Assembly (NCBI GenBank): GCA_027623295.1
Contig: JAQBXR010000013.1
Coordinates: forward strand, 1-64,000
Source of the DNA: Planctomycetota bacterium
GTDB taxonomy: Bacteria > Planctomycetota > UBA1135
Length of the DNA: 64,000 nucleotides
Direction: 5' to 3'
Positions 37,093 through 46,730 of the stretch are shown in pieces; within the stretch, counting starts at the first letter, position 1; each line of letters starts with the position of its first letter. The position numbers and the translations under genes are program-made. A model generated the notes under the pieces. It saw only the letters and a list, made by a program, of their open reading frames with translations, did not search any database and was not told the DNA's origin.

Positions 37093-37578
37093 ATGTACCC
37101 TAGGACTCGGACCCCACGCCAGAATCGCGGCCTCACTCGTTTCGAGTGGCTGTGGACGCTGCTGTTGCTTGCCTTCATTATTGGCACGATTGTAAGCACC
37201 CTCGACGCAGAAGTTGAGCGTGGAAACGAACGAATGGCGCGCGACGCGATTTCTTACCTTTCCAGCCAACTCTATCTTGGACTGGAAACGCAAGACTTTG
37301 CCAGTCCGGAAACTCTTCCGCTTCCTATGTTGGGCCCTGGACTGCCGCCGCGTGGTCTTCCCCTCGGCGGTGAAGAACCTGCGCGCCTAGCCAGCATCAT
37401 GCCCACATCCGGTTATCTGCCGGTGGACCCTTGGGGTCGTGGCTATGTGCTCCTTTTGGGCACCGCCGACGGCATGCTCAGTCTGTTTGTCGTCTCCAGC
37501 GGCGGCTCCGGTATTTTGCCAATCGACGTAGGATTAACCACGCCGCTTGCCGCGCGCGTGCACTTCCCAATCAACTAG
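37093..37578 (+). CDS. type IV pilin / T2SS pseudopilin (GspG)-like protein
   Basis: N-terminal RG|LTRFEWLWTLLLLAFIIGTIV (Gly before cleavage, Glu at +5) and C-terminal GYLPVDPWGRGYVLLL. Confidence 0.7.
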   Translation: MYPRTRTPRQNRGLTRFEWLWTLLLLAFIIGTIVSTLDAEVERGNERMARDAISYLSSQLYLGLETQDFASPETLPLPMLGPGLPPRGLPLGGEEPARLASIMPTSGYLPVDPWGRGYVLLLGTADGMLSLFVVSSGGSGILPIDVGLTTPLAARVHFPIN

Positions 37579-38180
37579 CGATCCCACGCACGGCTGAGCT
37601 CAGTCATGGTGACAAGGTTCTTCGCCGCACGCAAAACGGCAACCCCGTAAGCCCCGGCTGCTTTGCAGGCTGCCACCCGTTCTGCGGACTGGATTCCACC
37701 AATGGCGATGACCGGTACCTTGGTGTTTGCACAAAGGGATTCCAGGCGTTCTAAACCCCGCGCTTTGAGAAAGCCTTGCTTTTCCGGCGTATCCCAAATC
37801 GGGCCAAAAATAAGGAAGTTGGCACCATCCCTTACCGCGGTCTGAACTTCTTCTTCGGAGTGCGTCGATTTCCCAAGAAGTAGGCTAGGGAATCGTTTTT
37901 TATAAACCGCTAAAGGCAAACTGCGGAAACCTGCAATCACGGCATGAGCCTCAGTAGCCTGTGCATAATCGGCCATGCCGTGGACGGCAACAAAGGATTT
38001 CTGCGCGACCATTGCCCTAAGGACTTGCAGAGATTCTCTCGGTTCGCACCTAGGTCTGCGTAAGGTTACCGCTGCAGCTGGCGCTGCGGTCGTCAACCAA
38101 GCTTGGCCTTCCGCAAATCCCTCGAGGTCCGAGCAAATGGCCCAAATCCCCTTTGGAATACTGCTTGCCTGGTGCATCAT
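37575..38180 (-). CDS. thiamine phosphate synthase/TenI family protein
   Basis: GKSTHSEEEVQTAVRDGANFLIFGPIWDTPEKQG, VPVIAIGGIQSAERVAACKAAGAYGVAVLRA. Confidence 0.82.
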   Translation of the reverse strand: MMHQASSIPKGIWAICSDLEGFAEGQAWLTTAAPAAAVTLRRPRCEPRESLQVLRAMVAQKSFVAVHGMADYAQATEAHAVIAGFRSLPLAVYKKRFPSLLLGKSTHSEEEVQTAVRDGANFLIFGPIWDTPEKQGFLKARGLERLESLCANTKVPVIAIGGIQSAERVAACKAAGAYGVAVLRAAKNLVTMTELSRAWDR

Positions 38181-40174
38181 TAAGCCGAGCGCAAACTCGC
38201 GCCGTAATCACGCACCCAAGCGGAAAGGGCTTCCACTTTCACTTCACTATGCAACTTTACGGTGCTGTCATCGACCCGATCGAAACCAATGTCACGCAAC
38301 CCCGGGTGGAGAGAAATGCGATCTAGGACCTCTTTCTGTTCACAAAAAAGATGGCCGCCTTCAGACAAAGTCACCAGGCCACCTTTCCGCGCCCAAGATT
38401 CCAATGAGTAACTAACGTTTTGCGGCATTGGAGTGCGGCTGTTTTCGGTCAGCAGCTTTGTAATTTCATCTAACCGCATGCCTTCTGATAAAGCTCGGTG
38501 CAAACTCGCAGGAGTGATGCGGTAATGATAGAGAGAGTCCGTGAATTCACGATCTGCAAAACGATCGAGGCGATATACCAACTCATGGCATCGACGGTCG
38601 GGGAACAACACGACTTCAAAGTCAGGGTTCACCACAATATGACCACTACCTTCGATTTCACGGCCCGGCATGATGTCAAGCAACTCCGCCCCTACGCGAG
38701 TGAGTCGAATCGCCACAGCACGGCCAATGTCGTCATAGGCCATATCGATGATGCCGAGCAAATACAGGTATTTGCGCATCCAAACGAACAAGTTCCAGGA
38801 CAGGCTTCGCAGGTCTGAGGAGGAGCGCACCGGAAAAGACGACTTATCGTTCGCTGTTTCTTCGGCAGAAGTCAGGTCCGCAAGGTGGTGGTTGCGAGCC
38901 ACGAATGGGAGAAACATCGCGTCGTACCAAACGCCTGGTTCGAGACGTTTGATGTAGCGCAAAGTGGTCCGCCGCAAGCGAAACTGGTGACTTAAATCGC
39001 CAGGCAACTCGCGATCTTCCACGAACCAGTCCAGCATTAAGCGTTGTTTCTCGCGCAGAGTCATGCTCAGAAAGGTTTGCGCTTGCGGAGTTAAGCGAAA
39101 ACTACGCGTACCGGTGCGGTCGATAAAATTGCACGCAAGAGCAAAACGATACTCGAGTTCGAGGATTTCGAAACGTCGAAACTCGCGACCCGGGTTCGGC
39201 AGCAGCTGTTCGGCAATTCGCTTGCCGGTACTTTTATAAATCGTTCCGCGGGTGGTGAAGCGGACCGTATCACCTGCCACGAAGGAGGCAAAACGGGAAA
39301 AGTTCGACACAAAATCAACACCTATCGAAGCGATCGATTCCGGACTCGGCTCCCCCGTCAACGAATGGTTTTTCAAAATCGCGACGACCACTTCCTGAAA
39401 CAAGCACAGCACCCGTCCATTTTGACGAATGCCGGAGTTCTCTAAGTTCAGGGACAACCGCGTACCCAAAGAGTTTTTCTCTAGAGCTTTAAGGACCACA
39501 TCGATCTTCGTCTCACGACCAAGTTCATCGTAATCGCCAACCGGTAACAAGCCGCCCCAGCGCATGGCGAGATCTTCCACAATTTCACGCACGAGGGGTT
39601 CCAAGTTTTCGAGGCGCGATAGCACGGCAGCTTCACTTGCAAGCAGGGTGTACATTTTGCGCACCGCTTCACCACCGGAAGCGCCTGGAATTTTGGTGCG
39701 GTAAAACTCGGTCAACCAGCCACGCAGCGAGATGGGACTGCTCGTGACTAACTCCTGCGCACCCTTTGCGGGCAACACGGCAGCCAGTTCTTCTGGGATG
39801 CCCCAAAGATTCGTAGTGGCACCATTGCTGCTATGACTCAAATGAGCCACAAGCCCAGTGGAAACAAGATCGGCGAGTGCAGGGCGCACACTTCGCTCAG
39901 CAACCCCTTCCTTGATTGCGTTGGAACGCAAGGCATCAAAATCATGGCCACCACCTGCGCCTTCACTAAGTACACGGAATACGGGAGCCAAAGCTCCGTA
40001 GAGGCCTGAACAAAAATTGCTAACCGAAACCGGGTCCACCATGCGGTTGCGCAGGTTTTGCACCAAGTCGGCACGACGGGCCGGCGGAGTTCCTCCAATC
40101 CAGCGGTCGTGCAAATCGATCAACTCACTTTCCGAACGGGAAGCGAGAGTGCGAGCAAGGGAGAGGCGAACCAT
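38180..40174 (-). CDS. helicase-associated protein carrying XPB/Ssl2 N-terminal-like domain (no P-loop)
   Basis: IVVNPDFEVVLFPDRRCHELVYRLDRFADREFTDSLYHYRITPASLHRALSEGM... resembles the N-terminal domain of the adjacent XPB helicase; no Walker A seen in 664 aa. Confidence 0.82.
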   Translation of the reverse strand: MVRLSLARTLASRSESELIDLHDRWIGGTPPARRADLVQNLRNRMVDPVSVSNFCSGLYGALAPVFRVLSEGAGGGHDFDALRSNAIKEGVAERSVRPALADLVSTGLVAHLSHSSNGATTNLWGIPEELAAVLPAKGAQELVTSSPISLRGWLTEFYRTKIPGASGGEAVRKMYTLLASEAAVLSRLENLEPLVREIVEDLAMRWGGLLPVGDYDELGRETKIDVVLKALEKNSLGTRLSLNLENSGIRQNGRVLCLFQEVVVAILKNHSLTGEPSPESIASIGVDFVSNFSRFASFVAGDTVRFTTRGTIYKSTGKRIAEQLLPNPGREFRRFEILELEYRFALACNFIDRTGTRSFRLTPQAQTFLSMTLREKQRLMLDWFVEDRELPGDLSHQFRLRRTTLRYIKRLEPGVWYDAMFLPFVARNHHLADLTSAEETANDKSSFPVRSSSDLRSLSWNLFVWMRKYLYLLGIIDMAYDDIGRAVAIRLTRVGAELLDIMPGREIEGSGHIVVNPDFEVVLFPDRRCHELVYRLDRFADREFTDSLYHYRITPASLHRALSEGMRLDEITKLLTENSRTPMPQNVSYSLESWARKGGLVTLSEGGHLFCEQKEVLDRISLHPGLRDIGFDRVDDSTVKLHSEVKVEALSAWVRDYGASLRSA

Positions 40175-45879: not shown

Positions 45880-45881
45880 GC

Positions 45882-46730
45882 TTAACTCTCTCGATCCCCT
45901 AGATTGGGGAAATCATCGCCTCGATTTTCGGCCAGGATTTGACGCGTAGCTTCGACCAGCTTGGTGGGACCGGCAATGAGATTGGCATCAAACACCCAAT
46001 CGCCTCCGGGGCGCAAAGTGTCCACCACACCTCCAGCTTCTTGTACCAAGAGACCGGCAGCGGCCACATCCCATGGGGAAAGATGCATTTCCCAAAAGGC
46101 ATCGATGCGACCAGCGGCAACGTATGCCAGGTCGATGGCCGCTGAACCCATGCGCCGAATACCGCGTTGGTGCAGGAACATGCGGTTGAAGTTCTCGAGG
46201 TTGTTGTCCGCGAGCAGATGCCGGCGATAAGGAAAACCTGTCGCAAACAAGGAATCCAGGGGTTGGGAGCTGTTTGAGACTTGAATCGACTTTCCATTTA
46301 GGAAAGCGCCACCGCCGCGAATCGCAATGAAGGTCTCTCCCAAACGTGGTAAATGCACGACGGCAACTTCCGGTACCCCACGACGAAGACGGGCAATCGA
46401 TACCGCAAACATCGGCAGTTCATGCACGAAATTTACGGTGCCATCCAAGGGGTCAATGCACCACATCGACTCGGCATTGGGATTGCGCATCGGCTCATTG
46501 GCACTTTCTTCGGCAAGAAAAGCGTCGCTGGGGAAAGCGTCTCCTAAATGCTTCAACAAATAAGCTTCACTGGCCAGATCCGCCTCTGTCACCAAATCGC
46601 GTTTGGCGCTTTTTGAGCCGATCTGATCACTACTTAGTCGCCCGCTCCAATCAAGGAGGATTTTGCCAGCACCCACGGCAAGTTCTTCGGCTTTTGCAAG
46701 CACCCCATCTAACTCCGAGTTTTGGTTCAT
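45882..46730 (-). CDS. inositol monophosphatase family protein
   Basis: MWCIDPLDGTVNFVHELPMFAVSIA (DPLDGT) and SPWDVAAAGLLVQEAGGVV. Confidence 0.93.
   Translation of the reverse strand: MNQNSELDGVLAKAEELAVGAGKILLDWSGRLSSDQIGSKSAKRDLVTEADLASEAYLLKHLGDAFPSDAFLAEESANEPMRNPNAESMWCIDPLDGTVNFVHELPMFAVSIARLRRGVPEVAVVHLPRLGETFIAIRGGGAFLNGKSIQVSNSSQPLDSLFATGFPYRRHLLADNNLENFNRMFLHQRGIRRMGSAAIDLAYVAAGRIDAFWEMHLSPWDVAAAGLLVQEAGGVVDTLRPGGDWVFDANLIAGPTKLVEATRQILAENRGDDFPNLGDRES

What the first reader, a model, noticed from the sequence alone, without database searches (positions are those of the whole stretch)
37575..46730. Candidate alternative nucleotide-excision/DNA-processing operon: fused UvrA + XPB helicase + XPB-N-domain partner
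Seen: on the minus strand the order is inositol-monophosphatase, UvrA-like, XPB, XPB-N-domain protein, ThiE-like, with junctions from 1-nt overlap to 2-nt gap. Established knowledge: bacterial NER uses UvrA-UvrB-UvrC with UvrB as helicase; XPB is the eukaryotic/archaeal NER and transcription helicase, and some bacteria (e.g. mycobacteria) have an XPB gene next to a helicase-associated-domain gene. Inference: direct coupling of a UvrA-type damage sensor to XPB suggests a hybrid damage-recognition/unwinding machine in which XPB and its partner replace UvrB. This is my best candidate for an undescribed system in the window.
Basis: partly seen in the sequence, partly recalled or inferred. Interest (0 to 1): 0.88.

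Follow-up and report, generated by a model that had tools for sequence, protein, structure and literature searches.

The report
UvrA–XPB–p52-like repair gene trio
In a family of uncultured Planctomycetota, the only copy of the DNA-damage sensor UvrA has lost the parts it normally uses to feel damage, and it sits in one operon with XPB and a protein shaped like p52, two partners in the human repair and transcription complex TFIIH, which suggests that these bacteria start DNA repair in a hybrid way.

Summary
In detail: IMPase, UvrA-like, XPB, XPB-N-domain partner and ThiE-like genes lie head to tail on the minus strand, with junctions from a 1-nt overlap to a 2-nt gap. The UvrA-XPB-partner trio is conserved across many Planctomycetota families, also where the flanking genes are gone. 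XPB does not replace UvrB: this genome and all 25 relatives of its family keep UvrB and UvrC. Three points go beyond the finding. (1) The partner resembles TFIIH p52/Tfb2 by fold (Foldseek E 3e-9) and weakly by sequence profile. It shares a domain with the XPB N-terminus, as p52 does in TFIIH. (2) The UvrA is a shrunken planctomycete fused double UvrA (about 1950 to 1333 aa). It has lost both P-loops of its second half, the insertion domain and 4-8 of the 19 residues of the damage-sensing Zn3 hairpins. It keeps the UvrB-binding surface and is under purifying selection. (3) It is the only planctomycete-type UvrA found in this family. Most likely UvrA here is an adaptor joining an XPB-p52 translocase to UvrB-UvrC, that is, a TFIIH-like start to bacterial nucleotide excision repair. 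Physical interaction and repair function are untested.

The parts
41878..45879 (-). Degenerate, fused double UvrA (1333 aa); the only planctomycete-type UvrA found in the genome and its family
   Evidence: TIGR00630 270 bits, below cut-off; sole UvrA hit in its genome; 69 homologues of 1250-1400 aa, all listed ones with an organism in the source name being Planctomycetota
43675..45879 (-). UvrA first half (aa 1-735): two nucleotide-binding domains. Walker A1 45757-45783 and A2 44482-44508, signatures 44902-44928 and 43975-43998, Walker B 44827-44856 and 43894-43926. H-loop of NBD1 replaced (TADP), H-loop of NBD2 kept (VVEHHE 43807-43824)
   Evidence: motif positions; alignment with double UvrAs; conservation
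45148..45438 (-). Retained UvrB-binding domain of the first half (GWTRYR 45358-45375, LLDRFKW 45274-45294), followed directly by loss of the insertion domain and Zn2 present in canonical UvrA
   Evidence: alignment; near-invariant columns; positions
44188..44244 (-). Zn3 module of the first half with shortened hairpin (11 residues between CxxC pairs instead of 19)
   Evidence: 11 in 66/69 family homologues, 19 in 119/120 canonical UvrAs
41881..43542 (-). UvrA second half (aa 780-1333): pseudo-ATPase with UvrA fold; no P-loop, no signature; eight zinc-type cysteines invariant; Zn3 hairpin 15 instead of 19 (42283-42351); UvrB-binding-like patch 43099-43215
   Evidence: AlphaFold2 pLDDT 91.6; Foldseek top 38 PDB hits all UvrA, best 9gy7 E 1.6e-17; conserved cysteines; P-loop count; purifying selection
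40177..41877 (-). XPB (566 aa), helicase core intact: Walker A 41203-41223, DEVH 40921-40941, RED 40837-40848, motif VI 40330-40356
   Evidence: NF045503 807 bits; motifs; invariant columns
41494..41856 (-). XPB N-terminal domain (PF13625), homologous to the partner's C-terminal domain
   Evidence: (81.9 bits)
38180..40174 (-). p52/Tfb2-like XPB partner (664 aa), many short helices plus beta strands in the manner of tandem winged helices
   Evidence: AlphaFold2 pLDDT 88.5; Foldseek first 13 hits p52/Tfb2, E down to 3.2e-9; profile top PDB hit p52 6trs_A E 8.5e-5
38273..38635 (-). Partner's clutch-like domain (PF13625, aa 514-634)
   Evidence: matches the p52 and XPB N-terminal regions by profile
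45882..46730 (-). Inositol-monophosphatase family gene; syntenic neighbour, not part of the core trio
   Evidence: conserved neighbour in the order and family f49, absent beside the trio in other families
37575..38180 (-). ThiE/TenI-like gene; syntenic neighbour, not part of the core trio

Best explanation
The trio encodes the front end of nucleotide excision repair in this Planctomycetota lineage. XPB and the p52-like partner pair through their homologous PF13625 domains, as XPB and p52 do in TFIIH, and form a DNA translocase. The adjacent UvrA, a single chain holding two UvrA protomers of which one is ATPase-dead, no longer senses damage in the canonical way. It acts as an adaptor that brings UvrB (then UvrC), and perhaps Mfd, to sites probed or opened by XPB-p52. 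UvrB and UvrC still verify and cut. Shown: gene order and its conservation, presence of intact UvrB/UvrC, loss of the UvrA sensing and ATPase parts, retention of the UvrB-binding surface, p52-like fold of the partner. Inferred: physical complex, transfer of sensing or opening to XPB-p52, repair role.
For: UvrA directly upstream of XPB and the p52-like gene in at least 18 of 63 XPB-positive Planctomycetota genomes sampled, including families where IMPase, PBP4, ThiE and ThiL are no longer beside the trio (L319, L321, L322, L265). UvrB and UvrC intact and adjacent elsewhere. UvrB domain 2 equally conserved within this family and its sisters (0.68/0.59 against 0.64/0.56), with the R and R-x-E residues kept; the UvrA side (GWTR, DRF) near-invariant; Mfd also keeps the domain. 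Four P-loops in double UvrAs against at most two here; insertion domain absent; Zn3 hairpin 19 to 11 and 15 residues. Zn3 hairpin and insertion domain are UvrA's DNA and damage contacts (PMC7835731). Second half has UvrA fold and pN 0.13 against pS 0.73. Partner p52-like; XPB-p52 recruitment in TFIIH works through homologous domains (PMC6422496).
Against: No interaction, expression or phenotype data. Linkage may partly be old synteny: the wider block PBP4-IMPase-UvrA-XPB-partner-ThiE/ThiL-TsaE is itself conserved in several families. Most sampled XPB-positive genomes (45 of 63) were not shown to have UvrA beside XPB; 18 is a lower bound because the match list was cut. Profile scores to p52 are weak (24 bits) and Foldseek TM-scores are low (0.2-0.3), as expected of flexible multidomain chains but not proof of a shared arrangement. 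The genomes are incomplete MAGs.
Confidence: 0.6

Rival explanations
1. Old synteny only: uvrA, xpb and the partner stay together because a long housekeeping block is conserved; UvrA works with UvrB-UvrC as usual and XPB-partner does something unrelated, such as transcription or R-loop handling.
For: The whole block PBP4 to TsaE is conserved in the order and in family f49; XPB genes outside the phylum have no UvrA beside them.
Against: The trio stays tight where the flanking genes are gone (L319, L321, L322, L265). In family f7 the XPB-linked UvrA is a degenerate extra copy while separate canonical UvrAs are present, so an XPB-linked copy persists beside XPB although it is not needed as the canonical UvrA.
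Confidence: 0.2
2. UvrB-UvrC find damage by themselves in this family and the degenerate UvrA has moved to another job with XPB, for example transcription-coupled work.
For: UvrBC can find lesions without UvrA in E. coli (PMC5814901); the damage-sensing parts of UvrA are cut.
Against: UvrB keeps a fully constrained UvrA-interaction domain and UvrA keeps its UvrB-binding surface.
Confidence: 0.12
3. XPB and its partner replace UvrB as the NER helicase.
For: XPB beside UvrA.
Against: UvrB and UvrC are present in the genome and in all relatives of the family searched, with domains intact.
Confidence: 0.03
4. The UvrA gene is a decaying pseudogene or an MAG artefact.
For: Second half lacks all ATPase motifs.
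Against: Open frame of about 1330 aa in all genera with a full-length copy, strong purifying selection in both halves, invariant cysteines, well-predicted UvrA fold.
Confidence: 0.02

Closest known systems
Bacterial UvrABC nucleotide excision repair (UvrA TIGR00630, UvrB TIGR00631, UvrC TIGR00194, Mfd)
   Same: UvrB, UvrC and Mfd present; UvrA of the same family with UvrB-binding surface and two P-loops in the first half
   Different: UvrA is a 1333-aa single chain with a dead second half, no insertion domain and shortened Zn3 hairpins, encoded with XPB and a p52-like protein
Fused double UvrA of Planctomycetes (reported in PMC8567305)
   Same: Tandem fusion of two UvrA units; orthologous position by synteny
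   Different: Known form is about twice E. coli length with four P-loops; here one third shorter, with two P-loops
TFIIH core pair XPB-p52/Tfb2 (PMC6422496)
   Same: XPB and partner share a homologous domain; partner matches p52 by fold and weakly by profile, best in the clutch region
   Different: No p8, p62, p44 or XPD gene beside it; about 247 extra N-terminal residues; linked to UvrA
Archaeal XPB-Bax1 helicase-nuclease
   Same: XPB with a dedicated partner gene
   Different: Partner here shows no nuclease domain in Pfam and no Bax1 hit in the PDB profile search
Bacterial XPB with neighbouring 'helicase-associated domain' protein
   Same: XPB plus PF13625-type partner, seen beside XPB in several other bacterial phyla and in archaea
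   Different: There without UvrA; p52 homologues were stated not to have been found in bacteria (PMC3353954)

Membership tests
UvrA (TIGR00630) | Score over the curated cut-off (730 bits) | tested here: not met
   270 bits; it is a divergent relative by alignment and fold, not a standard UvrA
UvrA (TIGR00630) | Two complete ATPase sites per protomer | tested here: not met
   First half keeps both P-loops but NBD1 lacks the Q-loop Gln and H-loop His; second half has none
UvrA (TIGR00630) | Insertion domain and 19-residue Zn3 hairpin | tested here: not met
   Insertion domain absent; 11 and 15 residues
UvrA (TIGR00630) | UvrB-binding domain | tested here: met
   Retained and near-invariant by alignment; binding itself not tested
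UvrA (TIGR00630) | Damage-specific DNA binding and UvrB loading | not testable with these tools
   Needs biochemistry
XPB (NF045503) | Score over cut-off; Walker A, DEVH, RED and motif VI | tested here: met
   807 bits; motifs
p52/Tfb2 (TFIIH) | Fold matching p52 | tested here: met
   First 13 Foldseek PDB hits p52/Tfb2, E 3.2e-9 to 6.9e-6, probability 1.00; TM-scores low (0.15-0.32)
p52/Tfb2 (TFIIH) | Sequence similarity to p52 (PF03849 over cut-off) | tested here: inconclusive
   Window protein has no PF03849 hit; profile hits p52 6trs_A at 8.5e-5 with two collinear stretches; relatives hit PF03849 below cut-off, 26 and 22 bits
p52/Tfb2 (TFIIH) | Clutch domain homologous to and dimerising with the XPB N-terminus | tested here: inconclusive
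   Homologous domain shown (PF13625 in both); dimerisation not tested
UvrABC excision repair | UvrB and UvrC present with catalytic domains | tested here: met
XPB replaces UvrB | UvrB absent | tested here: not met
   UvrB at G000:C34:48838-50781, 917 bits

The most novel reading that the evidence does not exclude
In this Planctomycetota family the start of nucleotide excision repair has passed from UvrA to a TFIIH-like XPB-p52 pair: UvrA has been cut down to an ATP-poor, non-sensing scaffold that hands lesions found or opened by XPB-p52 to UvrB-UvrC. This would be a natural hybrid of the eukaryotic and bacterial repair logics, and p52 would be an ancient partner of XPB present in bacteria and archaea.
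Probability: 0.35. Interest if true: 0.9.

Novelty: new variant of a known kind. Interest (0 to 1): 0.75.

Why it matters
[quoted passage not shown] A conserved UvrA-XPB-p52-like operon ties bacterial XPB to excision repair by gene context and names its likely partner. The family also offers a natural experiment: a UvrA stripped of its damage-sensing elements that is still the only UvrA, with UvrB and UvrC intact. That makes testable whether XPB can open or recognise lesions for UvrBC, and whether the XPB-p52 pair of TFIIH predates eukaryotes.

Tried and rejected
'XPB replaces UvrB' rejected. A second, canonical UvrA in the family: only G020 has one, on a 2.8-kb contig, with best relatives around 80% identical and the named ones mostly alphaproteobacterial; treated as probable contamination or recent transfer. 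Pseudogene rejected by purifying selection. A shared origin of second-half decay in families f1 and f7 is not favoured: f7 groups with f2, which keeps four P-loops, so the decay looks parallel, though deeper branches of the XPB tree are weak. A Pfam scan of the whole partner alignment failed on size. Literature searches for XPB with UvrA operons, for XPB in Planctomycetes, for bacterial p52 and for p52 in Asgard archaea found nothing describing this system, and Rv0862c papers were incidental; subscription papers and preprints were not searchable.
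Full report
Observation. Junctions run from a 2-nt gap to a 1-nt overlap. Pfam and NCBIfam agree with the names. The UvrA-like protein is far below the UvrA cut-off (270 against 730 bits) and needed separate study.

The genome. The window lies in a 2.45-Mb, 34-contig assembly, 88% complete, of Planctomycetota by the names of its nearest proteins and loci. Searching it and 60 relatives showed UvrC in every genome (as fragments in three sister genomes) and UvrB over the cut-off in 57 of 61; in two members of the window's family UvrB is split over contigs but present. 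In the window's genome they are neighbours at C34:47078-50781. UvrB carries the UvrB_inter domain, helicase domains and UVR motif; UvrC carries GIY-YIG, RNase H and HhH domains; Mfd keeps its UvrB_inter domain. Alignments show the GIY-YIG and RNase H motifs of UvrC intact. XPB therefore does not stand in for UvrB.

Conservation of the trio. Within the family (f1) the order PBP4-IMPase-UvrA-XPB is found in all 15 relatives whose flanks were read, and where longer stretches were read the partner and ThiE follow. In sister families of the order the same order holds with a canonical double UvrA. In an even sample of 141 genomes of the phylum, 63 have XPB and at least 18 of these have UvrA directly upstream on the same strand (one of the 18 has a 1-kb gap). 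Longer stretches show that family f49 keeps the wider block, while L319, L321, L322 and L265 keep only UvrA-XPB-partner. Among 80 XPB loci from many phyla, UvrA was found beside XPB only in Planctomycetota, while a partner-like gene was found near XPB in many phyla and in archaea. The trio is thus a planctomycete linkage more persistent than its surroundings.

The UvrA. Planctomycete UvrA is known to be a fusion of two UvrA units (PMC8567305). The XPB-linked UvrAs of several sister families are 1932-2085 aa with four P-loops; the f1 protein is 1333 aa with two, and all 69 f1-type homologues of this length have two or one. Alignment shows loss of the insertion domain and Zn2 in the first half, a Q-loop and H-loop lost in its first nucleotide-binding domain, and a second half without P-loops or signatures. 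The Zn3 hairpin, 19 residues between its CxxC pairs in 119 of 120 canonical UvrAs and in the planctomycete double UvrAs examined, is 11 residues in the first half (66 of 69) and 15 in the second (65 of 69). Zn3 hairpin and insertion domain are UvrA's DNA contacts, the hairpin being damage-specific (PMC7835731), and both ATPase sites of each monomer are essential (PMC6486640). Kept are the UvrB-binding surface and, in the second half, eight invariant cysteines. The second half is predicted with pLDDT 91.6 and its first 38 PDB matches are all UvrA, the best a UvrA-UvrB complex at E 1.6e-17. Both halves evolve under purifying selection (pN 0.075 and 0.131 against pS about 0.73, synonymous sites near saturation).

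Sole UvrA. With the UvrA profile, 25 of 26 f1 genomes show either only this protein or, in one (G021, 75% complete), no match at the threshold used, although one search finds its C-terminal piece there. The exception, G020, carries an additional fragment whose close relatives are mostly alphaproteobacterial.

UvrB side. Domain 2 of UvrB, which binds UvrA, is as conserved within f1 as within sister families, keeps the R and R-x-E residues (identified from memory of published UvrB domain 2 work), but differs between the groups more than most other parts of UvrB. This fits co-adaptation to the altered UvrA; it is not proof.

The partner. Its AlphaFold2 model (pLDDT 88.5) matches TFIIH p52/Tfb2 before anything else in the PDB: ranks 1-13, E 3.2e-9 to 6.9e-6, with XPB chains following. 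TM-scores are low (0.15-0.32), so the match rests on local fold and order of domains rather than on one rigid superposition. An 80-sequence profile finds p52 (6trs_A) as its best PDB hit, E 8.5e-5, in two collinear stretches with nearly the same offset (247 and 246), and yeast and human p52 more weakly. Two bacterial relatives hit Pfam Tfb2 at 5.5e-6 and 6.9e-5, below the curated cut-off. The partner and the XPB N-terminus share PF13625. [quoted passage not shown] A 2012 paper states that p52 homologues had not been found in bacteria (PMC3353954), and no paper found here reports one.

Mechanism. Most likely XPB and the p52-like protein form a translocase module, and UvrA, deprived of its sensing parts, bridges it to UvrB and UvrC. 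The steps that are shown are gene order, presence and absence, domain loss and retention, and fold. The complex, the hand-over and the repair role are inferred. Rivals are old synteny (0.2) and UvrA-independent damage finding by UvrBC with UvrA in another XPB-linked job (0.12; PMC5814901).

History. In the XPB tree f1 is one clade, and f7 groups with f2. f7 also has an XPB-linked UvrA without second-half P-loops but keeps separate canonical UvrAs, so loss of the second half's ATPase seems to have happened at least twice at this locus. In f7 the XPB-linked UvrA exists beside canonical ones, which argues for a job tied to XPB.

Novelty. Each part belongs to a known family, and the double UvrA and the XPB-partner pair were known as genes. 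The UvrA-XPB-p52-like linkage, the p52 reading of the partner and the sensing-deficient sole UvrA appear undescribed within the searched literature. It is filed as a new variant of nucleotide excision repair.

Noticed in passing
G034:C15, G039:C9, G045:C27, G049:C219, G055:C17, G057:C45, G060:C27; L291, L292: A second fused double UvrA of about 1580-1880 aa in several sister-family genomes whose UvrA profile match skips roughly positions 116-262, the UvrB-binding region: a double UvrA2-like (class II) protein.
   Followed up: no
G031:C36 and G035:C71: Family f7 carries two single-length UvrA genes near each other (939 + 1018 aa; 994 + 1031 aa), unfused, in addition to the degenerate XPB-linked UvrA.
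   Followed up: partly
L218, L256, L270 (Chloroflexi/Anaerolineae MAG loci): Two partner (p52-like) genes in tandem directly downstream of XPB.
   Followed up: no
L258, L272 (Thorarchaeota) and L217 (Methanosarcinaceae): PF13625-containing partner-like genes near XPB in archaeal MAGs, one with a weak Tfb2 match (14 bits): possible archaeal p52-like partners.
   Followed up: partly
window 35702-48175, minus strand: The wider block PBP4-IMPase-[UvrA-XPB-partner]-ThiE-ThiL-TsaE is conserved synteny across several planctomycete families; the thiamine and cell-wall genes have no evident tie to repair.
   Followed up: partly
window about 37048-37578, plus strand: A small plus-strand ORF with a hydrophobic N-terminal stretch (RFEWLWTLLLLAFIIGTIVS), prepilin-like in look, lies convergent to the ThiE-like gene.
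   Followed up: no
window 34412-35667, minus strand: Sigma-70-family-looking gene (35107-35667) followed by a membrane-spanning, anti-sigma-like ORF 34412-35110 (4-nt overlap).
   Followed up: no
G020:C81 (L280): Canonical UvrA fragment with about 80% identity to its closest relatives, the named ones mostly alphaproteobacterial, on a 2.8-kb contig of a planctomycete MAG; probable contamination.
   Followed up: yes
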